From: Diphasiastrum complanatum
Taxonomy: Eukaryota; Streptophyta; Lycopodiopsida; Lycopodiales; Lycopodiaceae
Length of the DNA: 64,000 nucleotides
NCBI GenBank assembly: GCA_029204225.1
Contig: CM055095.1
Coordinates: forward strand, 43,196,862-43,260,861
Direction of reading: 5' to 3'
The position numbers and the translations under genes were made by a program. The notes beneath the pieces were generated by a model. The model was not told where the DNA came from. It was given only the letters and a program-made list of their open reading frames with translations, and made no database searches. The first letter of the stretch is position 1, and each line of letters starts with the position of its first letter. This document shows, piece after piece, positions 1-64,000 of the stretch.

Positions 1-603
1 CCCACTACATAGATTTCGTCGTATTTGCAGTTTGCACACGTCCCGATTCGGTCTTTTTGGTACTGCTTTAGTGTTGTTACACCAATTGGTAGTATTACTC
101 CAGTAGTCAGGTACTAATTTTACAAATTTTGTACTATTTTGGTATTATTTTTGTGTTGTAAAACTCTTGAATACAAAATATTAGTACTACGATAACTTAT
201 CGTGTACCAATTTTGATCCTGTTGACTACCTAATTAGGTTCTTTTATAGTAAGTGTCTCATTTTTATTCTAAAATCTACCAAATAGGTACTATTTAGACT
301 TCTTGTGACAATGTTTTATGCGTAAAACTATTAAATTAGGTACTTTTTTTTTTATATTTAATTGTGTTCGCAGCTCACATACAATCCTTTGTGGTCTTTT
401 TGGTACTATTTTAGTGGTGCTTACCAATTGGTGGAATCTAAGCTTTAGTTACTACCAATATTACAAGATTTGTAATATTTTTGTAATGTTTGTGTGTTTC
501 TGCAACTTTTGAGTACCAACTATTTGAACATATCGTGTAACAATTTTGATCCTCAGACTACCAATTAAGGTTCTTTATCTTTTTGCATGTGTAGTACTTT
601 TGC
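1..603. repeat. GGTACT-rich tandem repeat block, left part
   Basis: Two diverged units of about 300 bp (roughly 30-300 and 345-603) share landmarks in the same order: CTTTTTGGTACT, ACCAATTGGT, a TTTTGTAAT/TTTTGGTATT stretch, a TATCGTGTA box and CAATTTTGATCCT. Further units appear at 5838-6360 on the other side of copia A, so the element landed inside this array. No gene is seen. Confidence 0.75.
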
Positions 604-1263
604 TAAATTTCACACGTGTGGACTGTCCACTACATGTACTTGTGATCTCCTAAGGTGTGTAGATGCACCAAGATCAAGACTAGATTGAGATTCAAGATCA
701 ATCTTGAATCCTATGGCAAAAACACACTACTACATGCATTCAATCACTTCCAACTCTCACTCACACGTGTGGGAAGTATTCAAAAAATAATCTAAGTAAA
801 AACAAGCTGCTCTCCTCGGGTAGAGAGAGAAAATGCATCAAGAGCTCTCAGGTAGAGAGAAAAAGCTAGAAATCCAATAACTCACAAAATCCATGAAATC
901 ACTAAATCAATTTTCTATTGGACCTCACAAGATTCCACCTCTAAATCCTATTGGACCTCTTAAGCTTCATCAAAAAAAAGCATGACACTTGTCTACACTC
1001 TAATTGGCACAAGTTTGGCTCTATTTTGGCTCAATAGTGGCATTACAAGTGGAAATGGATAATTTGCCATCTATGCCAAATTTGACCCTATCAACATCCT
1101 ACACCTAAATGCTTGACTATGAGATTCTATGAGACCCCTATATCAAACATTTTAATTTACTCTACAATTCTCCACACGTGGGAACATCCTCCACACACGT
1201 GAGATTCACTTACAAACTTCTATCATAAAAAATACCAAGCTAGAATTTTGCCAATTTCTCACA
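604..1263 (-). repeat. copia A 3' LTR
   Basis: It reads TAAATTTCACACG at its left edge (the partner LTR has TGAATTT, so the terminal TG has changed) and ends TTTCTCACA. It carries four CACGTG cores at about 613, 764, 1175 and 1196. It matches 4720-5378 along its whole length. Confidence 0.9.
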
Positions 1264-1273
1264 CTCCTCCTCA
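1264..1273 (-). other. copia A polypurine tract
   Basis: On the minus strand TGAGGAGGAG directly precedes the LTR start TGTGAGAAATTGG, which is the usual position for plus-strand priming. The same arrangement occurs in copia B at 19916-19924. Confidence 0.75.
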
Positions 1274-1725
1274 AAAAAATAGCTTGGAAAGGTACTAGAT
1301 CACTTGAGAAGTTTGTAGATCTTTTTGAGTGGATCCTTTGGTATGCATAAGAAGTGAAGATCAGCCAAGGGATCCATCATAGCAGCACCCTCACCATATC
1401 CATGATAAGATCTCTTTGGTAGAGATCTCTTGCCAATGCCTTTGAAGAGTGCTCCACCAATATGCCACTATTATCATGGGCTTCCTCCATGCTTGATGAT
1501 GATCTTTGCCTTGAAAGTTCCACTTGCATGATGGATGCACCATAAATAGAGAAATCTGAGGCTTCCAAGCCTCATAAGGATCATGGAGATCAAGATCATA
1601 AGATGTGAAACAATGATGATTATCAAGATTATGCTTTCTAGCTTGACTAGTCCACATACAATGAACTATATCCATGATGGATCTAATCTTGATATCAAAG
1701 ACTATCTTGATCTTTTTTAGGCTAG

Positions 1726-3498
1726 TTACTCTCTCAAGGATGTAAGTGTCCATTTGGATGCTTCACTTAATCTCAAGAGGAGTTTACAATTTGTCTCAAA
1801 ACATGTGAAAACATGATTTTCAAAAAAGTGAGTACCAAGCTCAATCTTGTTCTTACTAGAACCAAGAGCATACTTTTGACAATACAATATCTTGCTTTTA
1901 GAAAGTATTGGAAACACATCTAAGTCAATAATGACAAGAAACATGTCCATACCATAAGCATCATACAAAACTAGTATAGCTTTTCTTGAACTTTGAGATC
2001 CAAAAAATTCAATGAAGCAAGATAGCATTTCAAGCAAAGGAAGAGAAGCATATATGAATGTGTTGTAGTAGATACAACATGAAATATGCCCCTCTTTGCC
2101 ATGTAAGGTGAGCCATAAAGACTCGGCCATGCATCTTGAAGATCTTCTTGAAATCATATGAAGAAGAAACTCCTCCTCACACATTGGCCCCATCATAACT
2201 TGAATACCTTCAAAAAGGATAACTTGTGATGCTTCTTGAGAAGCCTTGATCTCGGCCACTTCCAAGATTGAATCTTCATGCAATATGACATCTCTATTCA
2301 CCATCACATTTGAAATAGAGAGTGTAAAGACACTAAAGGCCTCCTTGATGGATGAGTATCCAATCATGATCCATGAGCTTGGATCATCCTTCCTTTTTGT
2401 TTCCAAGGGAATATATGCAAAGCAAGCACTACCAAGTTCACTAAGGTGATCAACCTTAGGCTTCATCTTGAATAAAACTTCATATGGTGCTATTCCTTCA
2501 AGAGCTCCAATACTCCTCAAAGCTTTGATCTTCAATGAGAATTTCTTCTCAACATATGCTTTGAATAATAAGGAATAATCATACACCATAACACTTGAAG
2601 AGAGAAGATATGTGCATCTTGTGTAATCCTCCTCCTTTGAAATATTGGAAATATAAGAAACATCAAGAGAGTTTGCACTCTCACTTGGATCCAGTTTGTA
2701 GATGCCTTCAAATCTTGATCCATATGCAAGGATCTCACCATCCTTCTTAATCACACAATTGTCAATATTGAAATTGACATCAAAGCCACTATCAAGAAGT
2801 TGGCCAATACTTAAGATGTTCTTTGTAAGCTTTGGGACAAAAAGAACATTGTTGAGAAAGAGATCTTTAGAAGATGCAAGCTTCAAGAGAATAATCCCTA
2901 CTCCTTCAATATTGCACTCATGCTTACCTGCAAAGTATATGGTCTTCTTGACTCCATCATAAGGCATAATAGATGAAAAAAAGTGCTTGGAGCCACACAT
3001 ATGTGAAGATGCTCCACTATCAATATACCATGAGTCATCCTTGTTGAAGGTGGAAGAGGAGAAGCTTGATGCCATAAGAGAGCCTTCTCCATCACTTGCA
3101 ATATAGTCTTCTTTCTCATTGGTGATGTTGGCTTGATTGAGTTGATTCTTCTTCTTGAAGCAATTGGTGGCATAATGGCCTTTCTTGCCACAATAAAAGC
3201 ACTTGATCATCTTCTTCTTGAGATTTGAATTAGAAGCATGAGAGGTATCCTCCTCCTCTCCATCTTGGTCTTTAGCTTTGTCATTAGAGAAGTGATGGTG
3301 TTGCTTCTTACTCCTCTCTTTGTGCTTGGCAAATAGAACTTTGCCATCATCATGATTGAGTGATAGCTTGTCCATCCTCAAGAGTTTGTACTCTTGTCTT
3401 GATTCTTCAGAAATAAGCACACTTTGAAGGGCCTCCAAACTTGGTAGCTCCTCCTTAATAGCATAGGATTGGACAAGGTTGTCATATTCATCTCTCAA
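1726..3498 (-). pseudogene. copia A Gag C-terminus, protease and truncated pol
   Basis: A 590-residue open frame. The first residues continue the Gag capsid region. A CCHC zinc knuckle, CFYCGKKGHYATNC, lies near residue 100. The aspartic protease motif DSGASSHM sits near residue 160. The post-protease segment ending LTKNILSIGQLL is present. The frame then jumps almost directly into the integrase C-terminal part (APYEVLF, then VNRDVILHED), so the H-H-C-C region and the D,D,E catalytic core are missing. The last 200 residues have no recognisable reverse transcriptase and lack the YVDD box. A pol C-terminal scrap (PKDPLKKIYKLL) is visible further down at about 1290-1380 minus. The initial Met is not a true start: it lies inside Gag, just past the frameshift described for the upstream frame. 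Confidence 0.85.
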
Positions 3499-3962
3499 GC
3501 ATTGAGAATGACTTGGACTAGCTCACGTTGATTGATTGAGTCACCAATACATGCAAGCTCCCTATGAATATCCTTGACTCTCAAAACATAATTAGATGCA
3601 CTCTCATCACTCTTTTGACTACTTTGGAATATTTGATTTCTAAGAGTGAGGAGCCTAGAGGTGTTCTTAGCCTCATAGATGGACTTGAGACAATCCCAAG
3701 CTTCCTTGGATGTAGAACAATCACCAATCTCCCTCAATATCTCATTAGAGACATTCATCTTAATGTAGTGGAGAGCCATCCTAGCTCTCTTCTTGTATTT
3801 TTGTACTTCTTGAAGGACTTGAGGCTCCTCCTCAATCCCAAGTACAATGTCCATCACATCTTGGAGTATCAAGATGGACTCCATCCTCAACTTCCATATT
3901 GAATAATTGGAAGTAGACAATCTCTCACTTGGTTGCAACAAGTATGAACTCATTGAAGTCAT
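3495..3962 (-). pseudogene. copia A Gag N-terminus (UBN2/DUF4219-like)
   Basis: A 155-residue frame beginning MTSMSSYLLQPSERL, with the copia Gag signature NYSIWKLRMES near residue 20 and capsid motifs AWDCLKSIYEA and LRNQIFQS. It ends inside the conserved LVQVILN motif and overlaps the next frame by four bases. Intact relatives read straight through here, so a one-base loss in a run of G is the simplest explanation. It would make the structural protein of the virus-like particle. The start is well placed about 740 bases downstream of the 5' LTR edge. Confidence 0.87.
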
Positions 3963-4703
3963 GTAAAGTGGAGATAAATAAAAGTGATGAACAAAAAATG
4001 TTGCTTCTCTCTCACTATAGGATCCAATAATGGTGTGCTACCATCTCCTATGCAAGATCTTGCAACAAACTGTGAGATGATTCTCACTAGCTATCTCAAT
4101 CTCTCCAAAACTAGATCTACTTCACATCAAATGATGGAGTATGAGCAAAGTTAGGATCAAACACTCTTAGCACGTGTGAAACACTAAGAAACCAAATTTG
4201 ACTCAAATACAATGATATTGCATGAAACAAAATGACTAAGATCTCAAAACAGTGCCTAGATCACATATTGATGAGATTGGTAAGCATTCAACTGTGATTT
4301 TGGATCAAACAAGCAATCTCTTGACCAAACCAAATGTGTCCACCCAGGTCTAGGTGCCTACCTAACCCTCTTCAAAAGCTTATAACTTTTGATTGGCTCA
4401 ACCAAATGGAATGAAACTGATTGCAACAGAAACTAGACAAAAATAGCTTCAAAACAAGCTATCTAGCAAGATTTTTGGATCAAACATGAAAGAGAACTCC
4501 AAAACTGAAATTGGATGTTCCTCACATGTGTCTGAGCACCTGATTCCGTACAGTACCAGGTCAGACCCAATCAATGTCCTTTTGATCTCTTTTGATCCAA
4601 AATTGAACAAGATAGCTAGGAAAATGGGCCTTGACAATTTCCAGCTCAAGATTGATGAATAGTTTTCACTCAAATGGATCAAAATGCATGGTAACCTTAG
4701 GTA
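3963..4703 (-). other. copia A 5' untranslated leader
   Basis: This stretch lies between the primer-binding site and Gag and has no convincing coding. It presumably holds the packaging leader, by position only. Confidence 0.6.
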
Positions 4704-4716
4704 GGCTCTGATACCA
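4704..4716 (-). other. Primer-binding site for initiator tRNA-Met (copia A)
   Basis: The minus strand reads TGGTATCAGAGCC three bases past the LTR end, complementary to the 3' end of plant initiator tRNA-Met. This is the standard priming site of plant copia elements. Confidence 0.92.
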
Positions 4717-4719
4717 TGT

Positions 4720-5378
4720 TGAATTTCACACGTGTGGACTGTCCACTACATGTACTTGTGATCTCCTAAGGTGTGTAGATGCACCAAGATCAAGACTAGA
4801 TTGAGATTCAAGATCAATCTTGAATCCTATGGCAAAAACACACTACTACATGCATTCAATCACTTCCAACTCTCACTCACACGTGTGGAAAGTATTCAAA
4901 AGTATTCTAAGTAAAAACAAGCTGCTCTCCTCGGGTAGAGAGAGAAAATGCATCAAGAACTCTCGGGTAGAGAGAGAAAGCTAGAAATCCAATAACTCAC
5001 AAAATCCATGAAATCACCAAATCAATTTTCTATTGGACCTCACAAGGTTCCACCTCTAAATCCTATTGGACCTCTTAAGCTTCATCAAACAAAAGCATGA
5101 CACTTGTCTACACTCCAATTGGCACAAGTTTGGCTCTATTTTGGCTCAATAGTGGCATTACAAGTGGAAATGGATAATTTGCCATCTATGCCAAATTTGA
5201 CCCTATCAACATCCTACACCTAAATGCTTTACTATGAAATTCTATGAGACCCCTATATCAAACATTTTGATTTACTCTACAATTCTCCACACGTGGGAAC
5301 ATCCTCCACACATGTGAGATTCACTTACAAACTTCTATCATAAAAAATACCAAGCTAGATTTTTGCCAATTTCTCACA
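4720..5378 (-). repeat. copia A 5' LTR
   Basis: 659 bp with TG...CA termini in either reading direction (TGAATTTCACACG to TTTCTCACA). It should hold the element promoter. CACGTG G-box cores flanked by CACA/TGTG are the obvious candidate control sites; the fourth has decayed here to CACATGTG. Confidence 0.9.
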
Positions 5379-5702
5379 CTTTGGTACTATATGATGCTTT
5401 GATACTTTGGTACTACCTTTATATGATGCTTTGGTACTACTTGCAGGTACTTTCTACCTTCTTGGTACTACCTATGCCTGTGTATGATACTTTGGTACTA
5501 CATGTATATGAGGCTTTGGTACTACCTGCAAGTACTTTCTACCTTCCTGGTACTACCCATGTACGATACTTTGGTACTACCTGTATATGATGCTTTGGTA
5601 CTACCTGTAGGTATTTTCTACCTTTTTGGTACTACTTGTGTATAATACTTTGGTACTACCTATATATGATGCTTTGAAACTACCTGTAGGTACTTTTTAC
5701 CT
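5379..5702. repeat. Minisatellite, about 79-bp unit
   Basis: About four tandem copies built from TTTGGTACTACCTGTATATG and CTACCT-TTTGGTACTAC sub-blocks. The GGTACTAC core recurs every 25-40 bp. No coding is supported. Confidence 0.8.
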
Positions 5703-8044
<2,342 letters not shown>

Positions 8045-8057
8045 TGGTATCAGAGCC
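8045..8057 (+). other. Isolated initiator tRNA-Met primer-binding site
   Basis: TGGTATCAGAGCC follows an LTR-like CA end. No gag is readable downstream. In the second copy (62079 onward) an extra A splits the motif. Confidence 0.65.
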
Positions 8058-8261
8058 CTACTCGCTAGAGGCTGTGCAATGCCTCCCTGGCTGAACTTGT
8101 TGGAACCCTCCACCTACTAGTCCTCATCTGTGCACAGGATGAAATGCTACATTTGAAGACTATGTGAACTCATGGACTGTGTTGATCAGAGTCTTGCACT
8201 AATGTATGTTCATCAGAGTCATGTTGTAGCCGCTCAATGTCTAGTAACCTGCCTGGTAAAG

Positions 8262-8263
<2 letters not shown>

Positions 8264-8335
<72 letters not shown>
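8264..8335. repeat. (GA)36 microsatellite
   Basis: 72 bp of GA after GTAAAGGG. The counterpart at 62301-62393 is longer. Confidence 0.96.
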
Positions 8336-9663
<1,328 letters not shown>

Positions 9664-9945
9664 TTGATCGTGGGTATGCCCTACCACCACCTCTTCACTT
9701 TTCTGATTTGTTGTAGTTAGTTGGCAAAATCTTATGTATACGTTTGTGGTTTGTGGGGAGATATGTTGGAAGAATAAGAAACACCCTAGTGCATTTATTC
9801 ATAAAAAAAATTAATAAGTACAATGATGAAAAGGATATATACATTCCCAAGGGAAAGTTTGACATAATGCAAGCTCAAACAAGAGCGAAGCTTGCACTAC
9901 AATTAATATTAGTTTAGCTTAAAAAAACTTGAAAAAGAAATGACT
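9664..9945. repeat. Dispersed repeat shared with 44370-44640
   Basis: 9664-9750 matches 44375-44420 in the same orientation (TTTTCTGATTTG, AGTTGGCA). 9764-9945 matches 44470-44635 in inverted orientation (ATATGTTGGAA, GCATTTATT, CAAGCTCAAACAAGAGC). The ATATGTTGGAAGAATAAG edge resembles an LTR start. Confidence 0.65.
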
Positions 9946-14771: not shown

Positions 14772-15289
14772 TGGTAGTGATTCCTACTTTGTAGGATCTA
14801 GACCATGATTTATGATGAGATTTGTACCTACCATGCACCTACCAAGCGTGACTCTTGGATCTAGGCTAGGAATTTCACATTAGGGCAAGAAAGTGGAGTC
14901 CACTTCCTTATTACATGCTGGATTTTCACCTAACTTTGCAAAGGAAGTGTGTTTTACTATGTATTCCCATTCTCCATAGTGAGAAGATAGAAACTTTTTG
15001 GAGCCTCAAGGAGAAACTCGAGTTTCCTCTCATTGTATGGTGATTACTCTATTTTTCCAATGAAACCCAGCTTTGGCACTTTGTAAACACTGTCTACAGG
15101 CCGTACTACAGCCTTATTTCTACACGTGTGGAGTTGTGCTTTGATTGTCTCTACTTGTTTCCTATCTAGCTGCTAAACTAGATCTTGTTTTCTGATGACT
15201 AGTTTCTGATAGATTGTTTAACAAGCATACAATCACCTTGTGGATCATTCAAAGATCCATTAATGGTCCTTAGTACTGTACTTTTCACA
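14772..15289 (+). repeat. copia B 5' LTR, missing its first ~154 bp
   Basis: Begins GGTAGTGATTCC, equivalent to 20079 within the 3' LTR, and ends TTTTCACA against the primer-binding site. Sequence upstream of 14772 shows no match to 19925-20078. Confidence 0.85.
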
Positions 15290-15302
15290 TGGTATCAGAG
15301 CC
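15290..15302 (+). other. Primer-binding site, initiator tRNA-Met (copia B)
   Basis: TGGTATCAGAGCC directly abuts the LTR end CA. Confidence 0.93.
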
Positions 15303-15681
15303 AAGTACAAGGCCATTGATCTGTGTTTGAATCTAATCCAGTTTTAGCAAGTTTTGGTGCAAAAAGCTAGTATTGGAAGGGCGAGCTGGTATCCAGGTTT
15401 TGGTGAGGAAATTTGATCCCAAACTTTTTCAGGATCAAAATCCGTATTGTTCACACGTGTGGGCATCTCTGAACCAGCATTTAATAACCCATATTCATCG
15501 GATCATAGAAAATTCATCTGGTGTCAATTTGATGTAATTTTTGGTGCAAATCCTAGGATAAGCTACCAAGATCACTTGCCATTGATTAGTTTTGAATTTG
15601 TTTCATGAAAACTAATTAATCTAGGCTGATTTCAGACCTTCTTAAAGTGAAAACCAGTTCTTGAAAGTACATCAAAGTGAA

Positions 15682-15684
<3 letters not shown>

Positions 15685-15721
<37 letters not shown>
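15685..15721. repeat. (GA)18 microsatellite in the copia B leader
   Basis: 37 bp of GA between the primer-binding site and gag. Confidence 0.95.
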
Positions 15722-15725
<4 letters not shown>

Positions 15726-15946
15726 TTTTTGTCCAAGAATAGCCAAGATTGGCAAGATTTGCTTGAGTGTAGTTTTCATCTCATCTTATCTCCATTCCAG
15801 CTTGTGAGGGAGTGATAGAACTATGATTACAAATCCATTTGTTGGATTAGAAGTCAACATTTGAGTGAAACACTGCAAGTTAGAAACCTTTGTGAGTTTC
15901 AGGTACAAACAAATCTATATCTTGTGTGTAGAATCTTGCTAGTAAG

Positions 15947-17152
15947 ATGGGATCAACGGGAGCCTACCTTCTAGAAGCTAGTGGGAGGTTAAATTCTACC
16001 AATTATGCTATTTGAAAAGTGAGGATGGAGTCACTAATGGTGCTCCAAGATCTTTATGAGTTTCTAATAGATGATGAAGATGAACCTCTAGGTGCACAGG
16101 AATTAGTGAGATACAAGAAGAGGTCTAGGCTTGCACTTCACTGTATTAAGATAAATGTAAGCAATGATCTTTTAAGGGAAGTATCATCATGTAAGAGTGC
16201 TAAAGAGGCTTGGGAATCTTTAAAATCTATCTATGAGTCTAGTAACACTTCGAGGGTTCTCATGCTTAGGAATCAGATTCTACAAAGCATGAAGAGGAGT
16301 GATGAGAGTGCACAAGATTATGTGCTAAGAATCAAGTCTCTTAATAGGGAGTTAGCTTCCATTGGAGAGAAGATTCAAGATAGTGAGCTTGTTCAGATTT
16401 TCCTAAATGGTCTAGGGAGTGGCTTTACAAATTTGGTCCAAAGCTTTGCAATCCAAGACACTTTGCCTACTATAGAAAAGCTACACAGTGTATTAGTAGC
16501 TGAAGAGTGTAGGATGTTGCATATCAATGCAAGAATGAATGCTATTTCTTTGCAGGATGGTGATGAGAAAGCTAATTTCTCATTCAAAAGCAAGAAGAAG
16601 ACCAATGGCAAGAAGAATCACTTCAAGGAGACCAAGGAGGAGGATGAGGCTTCAAGCTCAAAGGGCAAGATCAAAGACAAGTCCAAGTCCAAATGTTTTT
16701 TCAGTGGAAAGAAAGGACATTTTGCATCAAAATGTCTCAAGAAGAAGAAGGCACAAGAGAGCAAACAAAGCAACATTGCACATCAGGAGGAAGAGGAGGA
16801 TGAAGAGTCATCCTTGATGGTTTCCAACAAACCACCATCATCCAAGAGCAACACCAATGATTCTTGGTGGATTGATAGTGGGGCAAGTTCCCACATGACA
16901 TATCAAAAGGACATATTCTCCACCTTACTTTCTTACAATGACTTACATAGATCAATCTATACTGCAAGTAGTCAAGAATGTAAGATAAGTGGAATAGGAA
17001 CAATTCCCTTGTATGTGGGATCATCCAAAAGGATGAATCTAGATAATGCTCTTTATGTTCCTAAGTTAACCAAGAATTTGCTTAGTGTTGGCCAGTTAAT
17101 GGATAATGGCCTAGATGTACAATTTAAGCATGGAGTTTGTTCCATTCTTTGA
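15947..17152 (+). pseudogene. copia B Gag, zinc knuckle and protease
   Basis: The natural start is ATG at 15947 (MGSTGAYLLEASGRL), in frame with the later reading. Codon 23 is TGA (16013-16015) at a position where the family has Trp, so apparent coding restarts at 16019. Capsid motifs follow: AWESLKSIYES, LRNQILQSM, SELVQIFLNGL. The zinc knuckle near 16695 reads CFFSGKKGHFASKC, so the second Cys ligand is Ser. The protease motif WWIDSGASSHMT lies near 16865. The NALYVPKLTKNLLSVGQLM segment is followed by a second TGA at 17150. Lys/Glu-rich linkers flank the knuckle, as is normal for Gag. Confidence 0.9.
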
Positions 17153-18839
17153 AATGATGAATGTATAGCCAAAGGCTTTAAGCAAGGTAGATTGTTTAAG
17201 CTTGATGCTAATGTTGTAGTGGAGAGTGTTAACTTGGCTGGAGTTATCAAAGGTGGAACTGTGGCACAAAAGGTTGGGCCACCCCAACTACAAAGCCATG
17301 AAATCTATGGCTACAAAGGAGCTTGTAATTGGACTCCCCAAGCATTTGTCAAAGTGTGGGAAGAGATGTGAAGCATGCAGCCTCTCAAAGGCTCACAAAC
17401 TACCCTTCTCAAGATCTACATCAAGATCAAACTCTCCTCTTGAACTCATCCATTCGGATGTTCATAGTTTTTCACATGAGCCTAATGGTAGTGCCAAGTA
17501 CTATGTAATCTTCATTGATGACTATTCTAGATTTTGTTGGATGTACCTCTTGTCTAGCAAATCAATGGTGTTTGATTCTTTTGTAAAGTTCAAGACTTTG
17601 GTAGAAAATCAACTTAGTACCAAGATTAAGGTATTAAGGAGTGATAATGGAGGTGAATATATCTCCAATAAGTTGATTGACTTTTGTAGTTCTAATGGCA
17701 TAAAGAGGGAGTTGTCATGTCCATACACCCCTCAACAAAATGGAGTGAGTGAGAGAAGAAATAGATCTCTTTCTGAGTGTGCTAAGGCCTTAAGGCTAGA
17801 TGCTTCTCTATCCAAACCATTTTGGGGTGAAGCAATAACTTGTGCTAACTATTTGTGCAATAGATTGCCAAACCAAGCCATTGGAGGAATCACACCATTT
17901 GAAGCTCTATTTGGAGAGAAGCCCAATCTCAAAGATCTCAAAGTTTTTGGATCCACTTGCTATGTACACCAATCCTTGGATAAGAGAAGGAAGGATGATG
18001 CAACATCCATCAAAGGCATCTTTGTGGGATATGGTGAGAATAGCAAAGCTTATAGAGTCTTCAATCCCATCACTAGCAAGGTGATAGTGAGTAGGGATGT
18101 TATTTTTTATGAAGGACATGCTTGTGAGTTGGATGATAATGCTACTAATCATCTTGATGCCAAGGATCATGCTAGGATGGAGGAGGAGCTTCCAAGTGAA
18201 GAAGAACTTGAGGATCCACCTCAAGATGCAAGAACTCCAAGAACTCCAAGAAGTTCTGCAAGGGCAAGATCCGAGCCGTTGAGGCTCACCTATGATGGTC
18301 AAGGTGATCAAAGGGAAGGCTCATCATCTTTCACATCTTACACCTTTCTTACTTCAATGTTAGATGAGCCAACATGCTATGAAGATGCTTGTAAGTCTAA
18401 AAGTTGGATGGATGCTATGCAAGTAGAGTTTGATGCTCTTATTGAGAATCATACTTGGGATCTTGTGGATCTTCCTCAAGGGAAGAAACCTCTTGATTGC
18501 AAGGGGGTGTTTAGATTGAAGTATAATCAAGATGGATCAATAAGCAAGCATAAAGCTAGGCTTGTTGCCAAAGGTTTTTTACAAATCAAAGGCATTGACT
18601 ATGATGAGACTTTTGCTCCTGTGGCTAAGCTTGTTACTATCAGGTTGATCATTAGTCTTGCTACAACCTTCAATTGGGAGCTATTCCAACTTGACTTCAC
18701 AAATGCATTCCTCAATGGTTATTTGGAGGAAGAGATCTACATGAGGCAACCCGAGGGCTTCATCAAGGCAAAGCATGAAGGAAAGGTGTGTTTTTTGAAG
18801 AAGAGCCTTTATGGGCTCAAGCAAGCACCTAGAGCATGA
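17153..18839 (+). pseudogene. copia B integrase and RT N-terminal half
   Basis: The frame changes by one between about 17160 and 17250, because upstream residues (AKGFKQGRLFKLD) read in a different phase. The pre-integrase zinc region LWHKRLGHPNYKAM...CEACSLSK is then present. The integrase core has its acidic triad: HSDV near 17455, SDNGGEY near 17640 and the Glu in NGVSERRNR near 17750. GKP/KVFG motifs follow (FEALFGEKPNLKDLKVFG). RT begins near 18450 with KARLVAKGFLQIKGIDYDETFAPV and QLDFTNAFLNG. The frame stops at a TGA (18837-18839) just after KQAPRA, where relatives have Trp. Confidence 0.92.
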
Positions 18840-19754
18840 TACTCTAGGCTAAACTCTTTTCTCATTTCCATCAATTTTGTAATGAGTGCCTATGATCCAT
18901 CATTGTATATAAGTTTTCATGATGGCATGATCATTATTCTTGTTTTGTATGTAGATGACATTATCTTGAGTGGTAATGATCTAGATGGAATTAGAGATGT
19001 AAAAATTGCTTTAGCAAAAGAGTTTAAGATGGTAGATCTCGGCCTATTGAGCTTCATTCTTGGAATAGAGGTTATTAGAGGATGTGATTTTAGCTTCATT
19101 TGTCAATCTAAATATGCTACATCCATCCTAGATAGATTTGGAATGAAGAATTGTAAAGGCATTGAGACACCAATGGAGCAACATGTAAAAGCATCTATTG
19201 GTTGTGATGAAGCATCCTTTGAGGACATCACATTATATAGAAGGCTTATTGGCTCCTTGATCTATTTAACTATGACTAGACCTGATCTTAGTTATAGTGT
19301 TGGAAAGTTAAGCCAATTCATGCAAAGTCCTCTAGTTTCACATTGGAAGATGGCCAAAAGAGTTCTTAGATACATTTCATTCACTAAGAATTTTGGTATT
19401 TTGTATAGAGGAACTAATCTTTGCTTAAGAGCCTATAGTGACTCGGATTTTGCAGGTGACAAAGTGGATAGAAGATCAACAAGTGCCTTTGCCACCTTTC
19501 TATGTGATGAAGTAGTATCATGGCTTTCTAAAAAGCAAGATACCATCTCCCTATCTTCCACAGAATCCGAATACAAGGCCTTGACATCAACATGCAAGGA
19601 GGTCTTGTGGCTCAAAAGGCTATTGGTGGAGCTTCATGTCATGGAGGAGGAGATTCCTATCATCTATTGTGACAACCAATCAGCCCAATCACTTGCAACT
19701 AATCCTACATTCCATGCAAGGAGCAAACACATCGAAATTGCTCATCTTTCGTGA
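18840..19754 (+). pseudogene. copia B RT C-terminal half and RNase H
   Basis: In frame with the preceding segment across the TGA. The RT catalytic box is LYVDDIILSG near 18945. RNase H carries YSDSDFAGDK, SWLSKKQDTISLSSTESEYKA and IYCDNQSAQSLA, with the expected acidic residues. It ends at an out-of-phase TGA (19752-19754). Confidence 0.92.
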
Positions 19755-19963
19755 GGGAAAAAGTGTAAGCTAAAGAGATCAAGCTCCAACATCTGCCATC
19801 ATCAAGTTGCTTGGCTGATTTGTTTACTAAACCTTTACCTAAAGATTCATTTGTCAAGCTTAGATCTTCAATTGGAGTTATTGATAAAAGCATTGTGATC
19901 TCCAAGGCTAGATTTGAGGAGGAGTGTGAAAAATTGCCTACATTGGCAAATCTAGCCATGTAG
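19755..19963 (+). pseudogene. copia B pol C-terminal tail in shifted frame
   Basis: From about 19751 another phase carries SSCLADLFTKPLPKDSF, the typical end of copia RNase H, interrupted by TAA at 19766. It stops at 19963, so pol would overlap the 3' LTR by 39 bases. Confidence 0.8.
19916..19924 (+). other. copia B polypurine tract
   Basis: GAGGAGGAG lies directly before TGTGAAAAATTGCC, the 3' LTR start. Confidence 0.78.
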
Positions 19964-20615
19964 AATATTGTACATTTTGTCAATATTGTTTGTTGGTTAC
20001 TTGAATGGCCAAAGTGCCACTTGTACATACACACCTAAAGTAGGTTACCACGAGTCAAGAGGAGTGGTTGTGTCTATATGGTAGTGATTCCTACTTTGTA
20101 GGATCTAGACCATGATTTATGATGAGATTTGTACCTACCATGCACCTACCAAGCATAACTCTTGGATCTAGGCTAGGGTTTTCACATTAGGGCAAGAAAG
20201 TGGAGTCTACTTCCTTATTACATGCTGGATTTTCACCTAACTTTGCAAAGGAAGTGTGTTTTACTATGTATTCCCATTCTCCATAGTGAGAAAATAGAAA
20301 CTTTTTGGAGCCTCAAGGAGAAACTCGAGTTTCCTCTCATTGTATGGTGATTACTCTATTTTTCCAATGAAACCCAGCTTTGGCACTTTGTAAACACTGT
20401 CTACAGGCCGTACTACAGCCTTATTTCCACACGTGTGGAGTTGGATTATACTAATTGATCAATATTTTGATTGTCTCTACTTGTTTCCTATCAAGCTGCT
20501 AAACTAGATCTTGTTTTCTGATGACTAGTTTCTGATAGATTGTTTAACAAGCATACAATCACCTTGTGGATCATTCAAAGATCCATTTATGGTCCTTAGT
20601 ACTGTACTTTTCACA
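19925..20615 (+). repeat. copia B 3' LTR, full length (691 bp)
   Basis: Begins TGTGAAAAATTG, like the copia A LTR (TGTGAGAAATTGG on its strand), and ends CTTTTCACA, giving TG...CA. It contains a CACACGTGTGG palindrome with a G-box core near 20433. Confidence 0.87.
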
Positions 20616-20715
20616 AATCATAACTAAAAATTCAACACATTTTCTTACTAAAACATCTCAAAAGTTTCACTTTTCTTAGACTAAGCCTTGTAAAATGAGA
20701 AAAATATGAGTAACG

Positions 20716-21129
20716 ACCTATGTTGAGCATAGGTTATGTTGAGGTCCTGAGTAACAACCTATGCTCAGCATAAGATGTCAGCATGATGTGTCTATTCTTA
20801 TCACCTATCGACCTATGCTGAGCATAGGTTGCATCTCTAGTTCTCTTCTAACCTATGCTAAGCATAGGTTAGCAAGCAGCATGCGAAGACATCCTATGTT
20901 GAGCATAGGTGGGACTCGAGCACGCGAGTGACAACCTATGTTGAGCATAGGTTAGAAGAGGACTAGAGAGACAACCTATGCTCGGCATAGGTTGAAACGT
21001 GGTAAGAATAGAAATATCCCGCCGGCTTCCTATGTTGAGCATAGGTTTTTACTTAGGACCCGAACACAGCCTATGCTCAGCATAGGTTAGAGGAGAGGAC
21101 TCGTGTAGCCACCTATGCTGAGCATATGT
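20716..21129. repeat. Array of ten short palindromes within a larger imperfect inverted repeat
   Basis: The core CCTATGCTGAGCATAGG, with centre variants TTG, CTC, CTA and CTCGG, occurs at 20716-20735, 20756-20775, 20811-20830, 20850-20870, 20893-20909, 20933-20953, 20973-20993, 21029-21045, 21070-21088 and 21111-21129. A worn eleventh is near 21196. Centre-to-centre steps are about 40, 55, 39, 41, 41, 41, 55, 41 and 41. The pattern is symmetrical about the fifth unit (centre 20901), and the spacers on the two sides are inverted copies of each other. No coding is seen. It sits 100 bp past the copia B 3' LTR. It could be a foldback element, a hairpin RNA source or an array of dimeric binding sites. 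Confidence 0.93.
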
Positions 21130-21632
21130 CACCCAAGTTTTAAGAAGAAGAACACTAGCTAAAACCTTAATATTTAGTAATGCAATAATTTAGTACCCAT
21201 GCTAAGCATAGAACAAAGTTAAAAAATGACAATAATCTTACCATCAAGAAATGTGTGAGCGAGAACGTATGCAATATACTTTAAAAATCCGTGACTTTGT
21301 CATAGCAAGAGCTCTGGCAACATGTATGCTTCTGAATTCGTAGATGAGGTGAGTTATGCTTGGACTACGGTCCATAGATATTTTTTTTTTCAGACCCTTG
21401 CCTCACGCCGATTTGGAGCATGAGACTCAACTCACTTCTTGCCGACCTCGAGCTTGCGTCGGGACCGTGTTGTCGTGACTCACCTCACCTCACCTCACGC
21501 CGACCTCGAGCGCACTCGGATCTGATACTCGGTTTTCTGATATCTCTTTCGAGCGCATAGGACGTTGTAGTCTTGTTTGAACTTGCATGTTGCGCCTGAG
21601 TCCAATATTCAAATTTTTTCTTTCTGTATTTT
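21130..21632. repeat. GC-richer segment with short direct repeats
   Basis: Between 21395 and 21535, CACGCCGA/TTGCCGACCTCGAGC-like strings and CACCTCACCTCACC recur. Composition is clearly GC-richer than the surroundings. No gene is seen. Confidence 0.5.
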
Positions 21633-39210: not shown

Positions 39211-39424
39211 AGGAGTTCTAAATCCAAAAAAGACCCTTTGTAAAGATACTTTTTATATTTTTTCTCAAATTTTGCTTACACATGGACCAATCAAAACACT
39301 CAAATTTGAAATCTACGTAACGTAGCTCATTTAAATTAAAAAATGTTTTCTTAATAATGTTATAATTCGCGCCGGGGGCAGCCCACAAACATGACATGTT
39401 ATTCATAGTATAATATGCAATTAT

Positions 39425-39837
39425 CATTTAAAATAGCATAACTTTTTAACCGTAGCTCTGATTGAGATGAAAATTATATCGTTGGAAAGTGCTCGACGAG
39501 AGCTTTCCAATGGTACCTAGGTGACCTACTTTTGACCTACCGTTCAAAAGTTATGGCTAACCAAAATTTTAGACCCCAAAAAAAAAAGTCCACATAGCTC
39601 TCTCGTGCGCGGATAGAGTACCCTCTCACTGAGAGGGTACTCTATCCTTGCACAAGAGAGATATGTGGAGTTTTTCTTTTTTTTTTGGTCTGAAACTTTG
39701 GCCGGCCATAACTTTTGAATGATAGCTTGGAAGTAGGCAATGTAGGCACCATTGAAAACCTCTCGTTGAGCACTTTCCAACAGTATAATTTTCGTCTCAA
39801 TCAGAGCTATGGTTAAAAAGTTATGCTATTTTAAATG
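39425..39837. mobile_element. 413-bp foldback (MITE-like) element
   Basis: Starts CATTTAAAATAGCATAAC and ends with its complement GTTATGCTATTTTAAATG. The arms pair over most of the length (CTCTGATTGAGATGAAAAT with ATTTTCGTCTCAATCAGAG). The centre is an uninterrupted palindrome around GAGTACCCTCTCA/TGAGAGGGTACTC (about 39615-39650). TTAA lies at both ends and could be the target duplication. No coding. It sits between the TNP2 and DUF4218-like blocks, so it inserted into the CACTA unit. Confidence 0.9.
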
Positions 39838-39882
39838 AACTACAAATGGTAATGTACATAGAATGGTTAAGCATCGAAACTA

Positions 39883-53963: not shown

Positions 53964-55688
53964 CCCACTACATAGATTTCGTCGTATTTGCAGTTTGCAC
54001 ACGTCCCGATTCGGTCTTTTTGGTACTGCTTTAGTGTTGTTACACCAATTGGTAGTATTACTCCAGTAGTCAGGTACTAATTTTACAAATTTTGTACTAT
54101 TTTGGTATTATTTTTGTGTTGTAAAACTCTTGAATACAAAATATTAGTACTACGATAACTTATCGTGTACCAATTTTGATCCTGTTGACTACCTAATTAG
54201 GTTCTTTTATAGTAAGTGTCTCATTTTTATTCTAAAATCTACCAAATAGGTACTATTTAGACTTCTTGTGACAATGTTTTATGCGTAAAACTATTAAATT
54301 AGGTACTTTTTTTTTTATATTTAATTGTGTTCGCAGCTCACATACAATCCTTTGTGGTCTTTTTGGTACTATTTTAGTGGTGCTTACCAATTGGTGGAAT
54401 CTAAGCTTTAGTTACTACCAATATTACAAGATTTGTAATATTTTTGTAATGTTTGTGTGTTTCTGCAACTTTTGAGTACCAACTATTTGAACATATCGTG
54501 TAACAATTTTGATCCTCAGACTACCAATTAAGGTTCTTTATCTTTTTGCATGTGTAGTACTTTTGCTAAATTTCACACGTGTGGACTGTCCACTACATGT
54601 ACTTGTGATCTCCTAAGGTGTGTAGATGCACCAAGATCAAGACTAGATTGAGATTCAAGATCAATCTTGAATCCTATGGCAAAAACACACTACTACATGC
54701 ATTCAATCACTTCCAACTCTCACTCACACGTGTGGGAAGTATTCAAAAAATAATCTAAGTAAAAACAAGCTGCTCTCCTCGGGTAGAGAGAGAAAATGCA
54801 TCAAGAGCTCTCAGGTAGAGAGAAAAAGCTAGAAATCCAATAACTCACAAAATCCATGAAATCACTAAATCAATTTTCTATTGGACCTCACAAGATTCCA
54901 CCTCTAAATCCTATTGGACCTCTTAAGCTTCATCAAAAAAAAGCATGACACTTGTCTACACTCTAATTGGCACAAGTTTGGCTCTATTTTGGCTCAATAG
55001 TGGCATTACAAGTGGAAATGGATAATTTGCCATCTATGCCAAATTTGACCCTATCAACATCCTACACCTAAATGCTTGACTATGAGATTCTATGAGACCC
55101 CTATATCAAACATTTTAATTTACTCTACAATTCTCCACACGTGGGAACATCCTCCACACACGTGAGATTCACTTACAAACTTCTATCATAAAAAATACCA
55201 AGCTAGAATTTTGCCAATTTCTCACACTCCTCCTCAAAAAAATAGCTTGGAAAGGTACTAGATCACTTGAGAAGTTTGTAGATCTTTTTGAGTGGATCCT
55301 TTGGTATGCATAAGAAGTGAAGATCAGCCAAGGGATCCATCATAGCAGCACCCTCACCATATCCATGATAAGATCTCTTTGGTAGAGATCTCTTGCCAAT
55401 GCCTTTGAAGAGTGCTCCACCAATATGCCACTATTATCATGGGCTTCCTCCATGCTTGATGATGATCTTTGCCTTGAAAGTTCCACTTGCATGATGGATG
55501 CACCATAAATAGAGAAATCTGAGGCTTCCAAGCCTCATAAGGATCATGGAGATCAAGATCATAAGATGTGAAACAATGATGATTATCAAGATTATGCTTT
55601 CTAGCTTGACTAGTCCACATACAATGAACTATATCCATGATGGATCTAATCTTGATATCAAAGACTATCTTGATCTTTTTTAGGCTAG

Positions 55689-57461
55689 TTACTCTCTCAA
55701 GGATGTAAGTGTCCATTTGGATGCTTCACTTAATCTCAAGAGGAGTTTACAATTTGTCTCAAAACATGTGAAAACATGATTTTCAAAAAAGTGAGTACCA
55801 AGCTCAATCTTGTTCTTACTAGAACCAAGAGCATACTTTTGACAATACAATATCTTGCTTTTAGAAATTATTGGAAACACATCTAAGTCAATAATGACAA
55901 GAAACATGTCCATACCATAAGCATCATACAAAACTAGTATAGCTTTTCTTGAACTTTGAGATCCAAAAAATTCAATGAAGCAAGATAGCATTTCAAGCAA
56001 AGGAAGAGAAGCATATATGAATGTGTTGTAGTAGATACAACATGAAATATGCCCCTCTTTGCCATGTAAGGTGAGCCATAAAGACTCGGCCATGCATCTT
56101 GAAGATCTTCTTGAAATCATATGAAGAAGAAACTCCTCCTCACACATTGGCCCCATCATAACTTGAATACCTTCAAAAAGGATAACTTGTGATGCTTCTT
56201 GAGAAGCCTTGATCTCGGCCACTTCCAAGATTGAATCTTCATGCAATATGACATCTCTATTCACCATCACATTTGAAATAGAGAGTGTAAAGACACTAAA
56301 GGCCTCCTTGATGGATGAGTATCCAATCATGATCCATGAGCTTGGATCATCCTTCCTTTTTGTTTCCAAGGGAATATATGCAAAGCAAGCACTACCAAGT
56401 TCACTAAGGTGATCAACCTTAGGCTTCATCTTGAATAAAACTTCATATGGTGCTATTCCTTCAAGAGCTCCAATACTCCTCAAAGCTTTGATCTTCAATG
56501 AGAATTTCTTCTCAACATATGCTTTGAATAATAAGGAATAATCATACACCATAACACTTGAAGAGAGAAGATATGTGCATCTTGTGTAATCCTCCTCCTT
56601 TGAAATATTGGAAATATAAGAAACATCAAGAGAGTTTGCACTCTCACTTGGATTCAGTTTGTAGATGCCTTCAAATCTTGATCCATATGCAAGGATCTCA
56701 CCATCCTTCTTAATCACACAATTGTCAATATTGAAATTGACATCAAAGCCACTATCAAGAAGTTGGCCAATACTTAAGATGTTCTTTGTAAGCTTTGGGA
56801 CAAAAAGAACATTGTTGAGAAAGAGATCTTTAGAAGATGCAAGCTTCAAGAGAATAATCCCTACTCCTTCAATATTGCACTCATGCTTACCTGCAAAGTA
56901 TATGGTCTTCTTGACTCCATCATAAGGCATAATAGATGAAAAAAAGTGCTTGGAGCCACACATATGTGAAGATGCTCCACTATCAATATACCATGAGTCA
57001 TCCTTGTTGAAGGTGGAAGAGGAGAAGCTTGATGCCATAAGAGAGCCTTCTCCATCACTTGCAATATAGTCTTCTTTCTCATTGATGATGTTGGCTTGAT
57101 TGAGTTGATTCTTCTTCTTGAAGCAATTGGTGGCATAATGGCCTTTCTTGCCACAATAAAAGCACTTGATCATCTTCTTCTTGAGATTTGAATTAGAAGC
57201 ATGAGAGGTATCCTCCTCCTCTCCATCTTGGTCTTTAGCTTTGTCATTAGAGAAGTGATGGTGTTGCTTCTTACTCCTCTCTTTGTGCTTGGCAAATAGA
57301 ACTTTGCCATCATCATGATTGAGTGATAGCTTGTCCATCCTCAAGAGTTTGTACTCTTGTCTTGATTCTTCAGAAATAAGCACACTTTGAAGGGCCTCCA
57401 AACTTGGTAGCTCCTCCTTAATAGCATAGGATTGGACAAGGTTGTCATATTCATCTCTCAA
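55689..57461 (-). pseudogene. copia A (second copy) Gag C-terminus, protease, truncated pol
   Basis: 590 residues differing from 1726-3498 at three places: Thr to Ile near residue 125, Asp to Asn in the KLDPSES segment, and Leu to Ile in FPILSK. The same zinc knuckle, DSGASSHM and missing integrase core/RT. Confidence 0.85.
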
Positions 57462-57925
57462 GCATTGAGAATGACTTGGACTAGCTCACGTTGATTGATT
57501 GAGTCACCAATACATGCAAGCTCCCTATGAATATCCTTGACTCTCAAAACATAATTAGATGCACTCTCATCACTCTTTTGACTACTTTGGAATATTTGAT
57601 TTCTAAGAGTGAGGAGCCTAGAGGTGTTCTTAGCCTCATAGATGGACTTGAGACAATCCCAAGCTTCCTTGGATGTAGAACAATCACCAATCTCCCTCAA
57701 TATCTCATTAGAGACATTCATCTTAATGTAGTGGAGAGCCATCCTAGCTCTCTTCTTGTATTTTTGTACTTCTTGAAGGACTTGAGGCTCCTCCTCAATC
57801 CCAAGTACAATGTCCATCACATCTTGGAGTATCAAGATGGACTCCATCCTCAACTTCCATATTGAATAATTGGAAGTAGACAATCTCTCACTTGGTTGCA
57901 ACAAGTATGAACTCATTGAAGTCAT
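57458..57925 (-). pseudogene. copia A (second copy) Gag N-terminus
   Basis: Identical protein to 3495-3962, including the frameshift in LVQVILN. Confidence 0.87.
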
Positions 57926-59341
57926 GTAAAGTGGAGATAAATAAAAGTGATGAACAAAAAATGTTGCTTCTCTCTCACTATAGGATCCAATAATGGTGTG
58001 CTACCATCTCCTATGCAAGATCTTGCAACAAACTGTGAGATGATTCTCACTAGCTATCTCAATCTCTCCAAAACTAGATCTACTTCACATCAAATGATGG
58101 AGTATGAGCAAAGTTAGGATCAAACACTCTTAGCACGTGTGAAACACTAAGAAACCAAATTTGACTCAAATACAATGATATTGCATGAAACAAAATGACT
58201 AAGATCTCAAAACAGTGCCTAGATCACATATTGATGAGATTGGTAAGCATTCAACTGTGATTTTGGATCAAACAAGCAATCTCTTGACCAAACCAAATGT
58301 GTCCACCCAGGTCTAGGTGCCTACCTAACCCTCTTCAAAAGCTTATAACTTTTGATTGGCTCAACCAAATGGAATGAAACTGATTGCAACAGAAACTAGA
58401 CAAAAATAGCTTCAAAACAAGCTATCTAGCAAGATTTTTGGATCAAACATGAAAGATAACTCCAAAACTGAAATTGGATGTTCCTCACATGTGTCTGAGC
58501 ACCTGATTCCGTACAGTACCAGGTCAGACCCAATCAATGTCCTTTTGATCTCTTTTGATCCAAAATTGAACAAGATAGCTAGGAAAATGGGCCTTGACAA
58601 TTTCCAGCTCAAGATTGATGAATAGTTTTCACTCAAATGGATCAAAATGCATGGTAACCTTAGGTAGGCTCTGATACCATGTTGAATTTCACACGTGTGG
58701 ACTGTCCACTACATGTACTTGTGATCTCCTAAGGTGTGTAGATGCACCAAGATCAAGACTAGATTGAGATTCAAGATCAATCTTGAATCCTATGGCAAAA
58801 ACACACTACTACATGCATTCAATCACTTCCAACTCTCACTCACACGTGTGGAAAGTATTCAAAAGTATTCTAAGTAAAAACAAGCTGCTCTCCTCGGGTA
58901 GAGAGAGAAAATGCATCAAGAACTCTCGGGTAGAGAGAGAAAGCTAGAAATCCAATAACTCACAAAATCCATGAAATCACCAAATCAATTTTCTATTGGA
59001 CCTCACAAGGTTCCACCTCTAAATCCTATTGGACCTCTTAAGCTTCATCAAACAAAAGCATGACACTTGTCTACACTCCAATTGGCACAAGTTTGGCTCT
59101 ATTTTGGCTCAATAGTGGCATTACAAGTGGAAATGGATAATTTGCCATCTATGCCAAATTTGACCCTATCAACATCCTACACCTAAATGCTTTACTATGA
59201 AATTCTATGAGACCCCTATATCAAACATTTTGATTTACTCTACAATTCTCCACACGTGGGAACATCCTCCACACATGTGAGATTCACTTACAAACTTCTA
59301 TCATAAAAAATACCAAGCTAGATTTTTGCCAATTTCTCACA

Positions 59342-60801
<1,460 letters not shown>

Positions 60802-61845
60802 AAGATAGTCAATGTTCCCAATTCTAGGAAGGGGAATAGCCCTTGAAACATCACATATAAACTCCTTGTAAGGAACTTCAGTTGTTCCATTCTATTGCAT
60901 TGGGACTTTTTTTTAGATCTTTGACAATGCTTTATCATCAGAGTTGTTACTTGGGCCCTCCCCATTGAAGCTTTCTTTGGAAACTTCTCGGGTCAATGAC
61001 ATTTCATGATTCTAATTTCGGGTTGAAATCTCTATAAGAGCTTCAATAAGCTCACTCTCGAGATCTTGCTAGTTGAAGTATGTCTAGCTGGTGCCTTTTA
61101 GTGGTGCTTCTATGTTTCGATATTTTCTCTTTTGAGCTTTCACATAATGGCTTATTGGAAATTCAGATTCCTTGATCCAATAGATGTGACATGATTGTGT
61201 CAAACAATTATGCATGCATTTTGTTAGCTTGAAAACTCAAATTCATAACTTGACTAGGAGACTCACTAGAAACTTCACCTCTGATTGCTCCAGACTGCAA
61301 TATGGAATCATGAGCATCCCTTTGTTGCTAGAACTTTCCAATCATCACTTGTGTGAGGTTTTACCCACCGCACATGCCGCCGTTTTAGAATCCTTACCCA
61401 TAAGCTTTTGAATATATTCTCTTTCAAGCGTGTCTATAGTTAAACAATCTTAGTTGTTCCTACTTTAAAGGACAACTACAACCAGAAAACAACAAAAATC
61501 GAAATTATGCTCAATATGTGGATTTTTTCTACCTTTATTACAACTTCATGAAGGAATTTGGATTTTCTACATACGTAGCCAGAAGTCAATAATAATCAAT
61601 GCCATATTGCCTTGGCATGAATCTACATGGAGGCCAAATAGCAATTTCAATGCCATTATTATTCATTTAGGATTATAGATTTAGGTTTGTTCAAGTTTAT
61701 GGCACCTTAAGTAGTTTTAGGTCATAGAAAATGCCATTCTACAAATGTCCCTCTCCTTCAATAGTCACAAACTGTTGTTCTTTTTTAGGTTCTATCTGTC
61801 ACCAATGTAGAGGCTACGTCTAAGTTTTCATATTATTGAATAAAC

Positions 61846-62046
<201 letters not shown>

Positions 62047-62297
62047 TACTAGTATTGCATTAGACGATTAAAGCAACATGGTAATCAGAGCCCTACTCGC
62101 TAGAGGCTGTGCAATGCCTCCCTGGCTGAACTTGTTGGAACCCTCCACCTACTAGTCCTCATCTGTGCACAGGATGAAATGCTACATTTGAAGACTATGT
62201 GAACTCATGGACTGTGTTGATCAGAGTCTTGCACTAATGTATGTTCATCAGAGTCATGTTGTAGCCGCTCAATGTCTAGTAACCTGCCTGGTAAAGG

Positions 62298-62397
<100 letters not shown>

Positions 62398-62563
62398 GGT
62401 TTGTTTAGTTTTTGGGTAACCTCAAGTAATTTTAGGTCACATAAAATGCCACACTACAAATGTCCCTCTCCTTCAGCAATCACAAAGTTTCATTTTGTTT
62501 CATATTCTATTTGTCACCATGTAGAAGCTACTCCTCACTTGCCAGATCATTGAATAAACTGCT

Positions 62564-64000
<1,437 letters not shown>

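What the first reader, a model, noticed from the sequence alone, without database searches (positions are those of the whole stretch)
20716..21129. Regular array of ten ~20-bp palindromes, core CCTATGCTGAGCATAGG
Ten near-perfect palindromes are set about 41 bp apart (close to four helical turns) in 414 bp with unrelated-looking spacers. Arms are strongly conserved while the central three bases vary (TTG, CTC, CTG, CTA), as expected if the half-sites are what matters. No known plant repeat class that I can name has this form. Each unit could be a dimeric protein site, a cruciform, or a small RNA hairpin.
Basis: seen in the sequence. Interest (0 to 1): 0.85.

Follow-up and report, generated by a model that had tools for sequence, protein, structure and literature searches.

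The report
Transposon's array of palindromic binding sites
The ten palindromes are probably protein-binding sites in the control region of a jumping gene that has spread widely through this large, apparently plant genome and that also carries a bacterial-type DNA methylase gene, which makes a possible self-recognition system of a transposon open to direct test.

Summary
The array is real: ten 17-bp palindromes (20717-21128) and a degenerate eleventh at 21196. It is not unique: the palindrome occurs exactly 3,132 times in the 1.74-Gb genome (reversed control 0). The copies examined belong to a DNA transposon with 11-bp terminal inverted repeats and 4-bp target duplications, as in the Sola superfamily. 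The array lies between two divergent genes, a DUF7869 gene (probable transposase) and one with a bacterial-type amino-methyltransferase domain; it is upstream of the gene in 8 of 8 co-located DUF7869 and 6 of 6 co-located methylase matches. Extra sites lie before the start codon and in apparent introns, none close to the ends read. In five divergent copies palindromes stay 93% alike, spacers 77%. The variable centre is mostly decay of one CHG methylation site; the arms show no compensatory changes. The window copy is a truncated relic beside a copia element. Best reading: a cluster of dimer sites for an element-encoded DNA-binding protein, working like the VANC targets of Arabidopsis VANDAL elements. 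The binder is unknown. Closest known: Ectocarpus Sola1 with a ParB-methyltransferase gene on the opposite strand; no ParB domain was detected here.

The parts
20616..21511 (+). Fragment of a Sola-like DNA transposon: part of its divergent intergenic region. The left half (methylase gene, left end) and right half (DUF7869 gene, right end) are missing here.
   Evidence: Homology to 20 fetched genome copies starts at 20615-20692 and, outside the C4 relatives L009-L011, ends between 21197 and 21515; copies elsewhere extend to both ends.
20717..21128 (.). Array of ten palindromes CCTATGCTNAGCATAGG
20717..20733 (.). Palindrome 1
20758..20774 (.). Palindrome 2
20812..20828 (.). Palindrome 3
20852..20868 (.). 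Palindrome 4
20893..20909 (.). Palindrome 5, centre of the large inverted repeat
20935..20951 (.). Palindrome 6
20975..20991 (.). Palindrome 7
21029..21045 (.). Palindrome 8
21070..21086 (.). Palindrome 9
21112..21128 (.). Palindrome 10
21196..21212 (.). Eleventh, degenerate palindrome CCCATGCTAAGCATAGA; nearly the same form stands at the same place in most copies examined
20716..20870 (+). Left arm of the array-wide inverted repeat (83% complementary to the right arm)
20933..21087 (-). Right arm of the array-wide inverted repeat
14772..20615 (+). Copia LTR retrotransposon abutting the fragment (LTRs 14772-15289 and 20079-20615, 95% alike; gag, integrase and RT domains). Not part of the system; it marks where the element is broken.

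Best explanation
The array is the main cis-control region of a Sola-like DNA transposon. Each palindrome is the site of a sequence-specific, dimeric DNA-binding protein, most likely made by the element itself. About ten to twelve sites stand in the shared intergenic region of the two divergent element genes, with further sites before the DUF7869-side start codon and in apparent introns of the methylase-side gene. Dense clustering would let the protein find its own family's copies and act there as activator, autoregulator or anti-silencing factor, as VANC does on VANDAL elements. Shown by calls: membership in the transposon, position between divergent genes, mostly noncoding placement, palindrome conservation between subfamilies, absence close to the ends read, a signature of host cytosine methylation. 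Inferred: that a protein binds, that it is element-encoded, and what binding does.
For: Element ends and 4-bp target duplications. DUF7869 at E 1.4e-46; methylase domain at E 1.7e-11, above the Pfam cut-off. Divergent gene order in 8 of 8 pairs, two of which look like one duplicated locus. Array upstream of 8 of 8 co-located DUF7869 and 6 of 6 co-located methylase places, control means 0.12 and 0.10. Sites at about +1000, +1070, -620 and a trio at -2570 to -2430 (L015 coordinates) recur in many copies; no match within 1.3 kb of the 7 left ends or 2.0 kb of the 4 right ends read. Palindromes 93.2% against spacers 77.3% in five divergent copies; within the window array 90% against 52%. Core sites persist in two loci whose DUF7869 protein is 78 and 71% alike: 7 and 6 sites against 0.20 and 0.15 expected. 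Exact palindrome 3,132 times, control 0. VANC precedent (PMC5735166).
Against: No binding, expression or methylation data. The binding protein is not identified; the family scans made recognised no DNA-binding domain in either gene. Among 17 close copies palindromes are no better conserved than spacers (95.1 against 94.7%), as expected for dead copies but giving no support. The five divergent copies were chosen because they carry arrays, from 11 fetched; L032 keeps dispersed sites but no array, and four others lack the region. Homogenisation within arrays could mimic selection. A few weak matches (3 mismatches) recur inside coding frames, at about -2850, -1790 and +1690; they look like chance.
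Confidence: 0.65

Rival explanations
1. The array works through RNA: read-through transcripts fold into a long hairpin that is diced into small RNAs, either silencing the family or regulating it.
For: The 441-nt array folds at -254 kcal/mol, z -23.6, 0 of 100 shuffles as good; 5 divergent arrays fold at -240 to -308 kcal/mol (no shuffles run). Over all 22 copies mirrored spacers show more paired double changes than shuffles (39 against 23.7; 1 of 300 shuffles reaches it), though relatedness inflates this.
Against: Palindromes show 1 double change against 167 single (about 7 expected); the 17 close copies show no covariation; the mirror layout differs between subfamilies; small dispersed sites in apparent introns do not need a long hairpin. 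No Rfam match in 20300-21600 at gathering scores.
Confidence: 0.15
2. The palindromes are transposase or end-recognition sites for transposition itself, like subterminal TnpA sites of CACTA elements (recalled).
For: Repeated short motif inside a DNA transposon; the CACTA analogy is recalled.
Against: No palindrome with 3 or fewer mismatches within 1.3 kb of the 7 left ends or 2.0 kb of the 4 right ends read; the array is central.
Confidence: 0.06
3. No function: tandem and inverted duplication plus homogenisation made a palindromic microarray that hitch-hikes in the transposon.
For: Arrays do turn over by inverted duplication; close copies decay evenly.
Against: Palindromes stay alike while adjacent spacers become unrelated within one array; the same palindrome sits among quite different spacers and spacings (28, 34, about 41 and 54 bp) genome-wide; isolated sites outside arrays persist at fixed places.
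Confidence: 0.14

Closest known systems
Sola1-1_Ec32 transposon of Ectocarpus, with a ParB-like plus DNA methyltransferase gene on the strand opposite to the transposase (PMC12477816, passages seen)
   Same: Large DNA transposon; putative transposase and an amino-methyltransferase gene on opposite strands; the authors suggest that such proteins may bind and modify their own transposon.
   Different: No ParB domain detected here; no array of palindromic sites is mentioned in the passages seen; this element is about 7-9 kb, not 21.5 kb. Sequence homology of the transposases was not tested.
VANDAL21 / VANC21 target arrays in Arabidopsis (PMC5735166, sections 8 and 9 read; PMC10398659, abstract and outline seen)
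   Same: Short motif repeated at high density in noncoding regions (introns, upstream of the transposase gene) of one transposon family; arrays gain and lose repeats between related copies.
   Different: The VANC21 motif YAGTATTAY is not palindromic and is arrayed in one orientation; VANDALs are Mutator-like (recalled), a superfamily with 7-12-bp target duplications; no VANC protein was looked for or seen here.
ParB-parS partition sites (recalled)
   Same: Clusters of roughly 16-bp inverted repeats near the gene of the binding protein.
   Different: No ParB_N match in this genome; different core sequence (recalled).
Subterminal TnpA sites of CACTA/En-Spm elements (recalled)
   Same: Multiple short motifs in a plant DNA transposon.
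   Different: Those lie at the element ends; here the array is central and the ends read are free of the motif.

Membership tests
Sola superfamily of DNA transposons (features from PMC10741241, passage) | 4-bp target site duplication | tested here: met
   Of 4 copies with both ends read: ATGT/ATGT, ATAT/ATAT, TATT/TATT if the right end lost 1 nt, TTAT/TTAC (3 of 4 bases). Small number.
Sola superfamily of DNA transposons (features from PMC10741241, passage) | Terminal inverted repeats, 11-1124 bp | tested here: met
   AACAYGATGAC (11 bp) in 7 left and 4 right ends (some are duplicates of one another); one further right end differs (L043).
Sola superfamily of DNA transposons (features from PMC10741241, passage) | Transposase homologous to Sola DDD transposases | not testable with these tools
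   No Sola reference sequence was at hand; DUF7869 shows D-containing motifs by eye only; no paper in the library mentions DUF7869.
Sola1 type with opposite-strand ParB-methyltransferase gene | DNA amino-methyltransferase gene divergent from the transposase gene | tested here: met
   PF01555 E 1.7e-11; MboIIA and RsrI best among solved structures; 8 of 8 pairs divergent.
Sola1 type with opposite-strand ParB-methyltransferase gene | ParB-like domain | tested here: not met
   PF02195 finds no candidate in the genome at E up to 1 while ringing in 11 of 14 control genomes; hmmscan, PDB, PHROGs, NCBIfam and hhalign negative. The profiles were shallow, so a diverged domain is not excluded.
VANDAL/VANC system | Mutator-like element (7-12-bp target duplications) | tested here: not met
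   Target duplication is 4 bp and the genes found are DUF7869 and a methylase.
VANDAL/VANC system | VANC-type anti-silencing protein | not tested
   No VANC-specific search was made.
VANDAL/VANC system | Dense motif arrays in noncoding regions of the element | tested here: met
MITE or satellite | Short non-coding element or long tandem array as the whole repeat unit | tested here: not met
   The array is part of an element of about 7-9 kb with genes and ends.

The most novel reading that the evidence does not exclude
The palindromes are the recognition sites of a transposon-encoded amino-methyltransferase system: the methylase-side protein binds the array between its own gene and the transposase gene and writes 6mA or 4mC there, marking family members as self and countering host CHG/CG silencing. 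A transposon of an apparent plant would then carry its own non-5mC epigenetic code with a visible address.
Probability: 0.18. Interest if true: 0.9.

Novelty: new variant of a known kind. Interest (0 to 1): 0.6.

Why it matters
It has been proposed that methylase-carrying transposons bind and modify their own sequence (PMC12477816, passages), but the passages seen name no address sequence. This family offers one: a 17-21-bp palindrome, thousands of exact copies, clustered between the two genes. It makes the proposal testable by binding assay and by native methylation sequencing. If the binder is an anti-silencing factor, it would be a second solution to the VANC problem. Sola elements are said to be not common in flowering plants (PMC10741241; Physcomitrella and Capsicum are named in PMC9033089), so a Sola-like family with over a thousand first-look candidate ends in one genome would be unusual in itself, if the host is a flowering plant and the family is Sola.

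Tried and rejected
MITE or satellite: rejected, the array belongs to a larger element with genes and ends. CACTA-like end sites: rejected, no sites close to the ends read. Selected small hairpin or cruciform: not supported. ParB identity of the methylase-side gene: suspected by eye, not supported by hmmscan, PDB, PHROGs, NCBIfam, hhalign or a genome search with PF02195; relatives of that piece were not found in phages or viral contigs. Rfam: nothing. One search used a wrong stretch (coding, not the left end) and serves only as a coding-region copy count (741 candidates). Literature: two 13-base forms of the core in 0 papers; DUF7869 in 0 papers; searches gave the analogues cited and, in their listings, no description of this array. 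The 2009 Sola paper is not held. The host was not identified.

Full report
Observation. The window holds ten palindromes CCTATGCTNAGCATAGG at 20717-21128 and a weaker eleventh at 21196, against a mean of 0.33 chance matches in shuffles. Intervals are 41, 54, 40, 41, 42, 40, 54, 41, 42. Within the array palindromes are 90% alike, spacers 52% (shuffled 49%), but mirror-image spacers are 75, 70, 87 and 52% alike, so the array is also one large inverted repeat. Pooled over 281 palindromes from 23 fetched sequences and the window, the site extends weakly to AACCTATGCTSAGCATAGGTT.

Genome context. The window is part of a 1.74-Gb genome of 5,176 contigs. The 441-bp stretch has 40 scored copies at 88-100% identity, most of them full length, a lower bound since 40 of 519 candidates were scored. 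The exact pattern CCTATGYTNARCATAGG occurs 3,132 times; read backwards, 0 times. The 50 palindromes listed there fall into 10 clusters of 2 to 9; at about 5 per cluster the genome would hold some 600 clusters (extrapolation). Exact pairs: 1,011 with gaps of 22-26 bp, 327 with 27-57, 117 with 0-21; the second class can span another site. Spacers in some of the listed arrays are unrelated to those in the window while the palindrome is the same.

The carrier. Alignment of 20 copies with about 10 kb each shows a larger element with many internal deletions. Its ends are AACAYGATGAC and the reverse complement (7 left and 4 right ends, some from duplicated loci). Four copies with both ends read give 4-bp target duplications: two exact, one exact with a 1-nt loss at the right end, one 3 of 4 bases. 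First-look candidates number 1,119 for the left end and 1,168 for the right end, 40 of each scored. The element is about 7.1 kb in L023 and has longer left parts in L025 and L028.

Genes. To the right of the array runs a gene with DUF7869 (PF25273, E 1.4e-46), a probable transposase (inference). To the left, on the other strand, lies a gene with an N6/N4 amino-methyltransferase domain (PF01555, E 1.7e-11, above cut-off; best solved structures MboIIA and RsrI methylases). A DIPYG stretch in the place of motif IV was seen by eye. In the genome 150 of 1,605 candidates were scored for PF01555, and all 150 are over the cut-off. Of DUF7869, 120 of 4,493 candidates were scored. Among scored places less than 15 kb apart, 8 of 8 DUF7869-methylase pairs are divergent (those on C12 and C4185 look like one duplicated locus); 3 of 3 DUF7869-left end, 3 of 3 left end-methylase and 4 of 4 right end-methylase pairs fit one gene order; of 6 DUF7869-right end pairs 4 fit and 2 (again apparent duplicates) do not. 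For arrays I merged by hand the places listed into 80 and compared them with the 51 of 120 DUF7869 and 63 of 150 methylase places on the same contigs. Those within 6 kb lie upstream of the gene in 8 of 8 and 6 of 6 cases, at 0.8-3.4 kb; moving the arrays at random gives means of 0.12 and 0.10 such pairs. Most listed arrays have no scored gene nearby, which says little because most candidates were not scored.

Where the palindromes are. Besides the array, matches with 3 or fewer mismatches recur at about +497, +1000, +1070, -620 and as a trio from -2570 to -2430 relative to the array start (coordinates of L015 and its like; shifted by deletions elsewhere). The gene to the right starts near +1133 in L023 (first Met of the open frame, inferred). 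The sites at -620 and the trio lie between open frames of the left gene, so apparently in introns. Weak matches also recur inside coding frames at about -2850, -1790 and +1690, and scattered elsewhere. No match lies within 1.3 kb of the 7 left ends or 2.0 kb of the 4 right ends read.

Conservation. In 17 close copies (16 of 20 loci plus the window; L013, L016, L017 left out as near-duplicates, L026 as partial) palindrome columns are 95.1% and spacer columns 94.7% identical to the majority base: no difference, as for dead copies. In five divergent copies the figures are 93.2 and 77.3%; over all 22, palindromes 94.0, spacers 87.7, right flank 89.1%. The five were picked from 11 DUF7869-containing loci because they have arrays. 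Of the other six, L030 keeps 7 and L032 6 core sites (0.20 and 0.15 expected), L032 without an array; L029, L031, L033 and L037 have no array, and in them detectable homology to the element stops inside the coding region, so the intergenic part is absent.

The variable centre. When the centre base is G, the C two bases before it is T in 44 of 113 palindromes; with other centres in 2 of 101. When the centre is C, the mirror G is A in 19 of 65; otherwise in 0 of 149 (214 ungapped palindromes of 220). These are the CHG positions. Over the region, transitions are 12.7% at CG, 15.5% at CHG, 3.8% at CHH and 1.7% at A/T sites. So most of the centre variation is best read as the trace of host cytosine methylation, and the copies were probably silenced. 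Changes shared by descent were not removed.

RNA structure. The array would fold at -254 kcal/mol (z -23.6), because it is an inverted repeat. Palindromes carry 167 single-arm changes and 1 double. Mirrored spacers show no covariation in close copies (double changes 1 against 3.1 shuffled) but an excess over all 22 copies (39 against 23.7, 1 of 300 shuffles reaches it), which relatedness can cause. Mirror layouts differ among subfamilies: arrays turn over by inverted duplication.

The window copy. Its homology starts at the 3' end of a copia element (LTRs 14772-15289 and 20079-20615) and stops near 21511; neither gene is present. The flanks of that copia element show no target duplication, so the junction was probably rearranged. 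Close relatives lie within 0.9 Mb on the same contig, and three of them share a longer stretch with the window, as duplicates of one broken insertion would. Two further places on contig C3 are 99.97-100% identical to the window over 3.4 kb.

Mechanism. Conserved symmetric half-sites, dense clusters in the divergent control region, isolated copies in apparent introns, absence close to the ends, and constancy of the site while spacers change all fit a dimeric DNA-binding protein that recognises the family. The VANC21 precedent has the same placement (introns and upstream regions; PMC5735166 sections 8-9). The methylase gene adds the option that binding leads to DNA modification, as proposed for Ectocarpus Sola1 (PMC12477816 passages). 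Which protein binds is open: no ParB domain was found, and no DNA-binding domain was recognised by the family scans made.

Verdict. A real, strong and functional-looking feature of an abundant transposon family, whose copies examined look mostly dead; a new variant of a known kind (site arrays of a transposon), with an unusual partner gene.

Noticed in passing
window 1-9932 and 53964-64000: A direct repeat of about 10 kb, 97.5-99.8% identical, 54 kb apart and running off both window ends: a recent tandem duplication or an assembly duplication.
   Followed up: no
window 39424-39838: A 415-bp near-palindrome (83.5% self-complementary), perhaps a foldback MITE; it lacks the array palindrome.
   Followed up: no
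window 14772-20615: Copia element with 95% identical LTRs but different 5-bp flanks (no target duplication), hinting at recombination between copies.
   Followed up: partly
G000, PF01555 places: 1,605 first-look candidates of a bacterial-type amino-methyltransferase domain in one apparently plant genome; 150 of 150 scored are over the Pfam cut-off.
   Followed up: partly
L002, L003 (contig C3, 56.46 and 56.39 Mb): Two stretches 99.97-100% identical to the window over 3.4 kb on another contig: very recent duplication or assembly error.
   Followed up: no
L026, about 4.7 kb upstream of its array: A second, diverged array with the same palindrome in direct orientation, perhaps two elements side by side.
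   Followed up: no
L010, about 0.7-0.8 kb outside its left end: Two palindrome-like matches beyond the element end, perhaps part of another element next to it.
   Followed up: no
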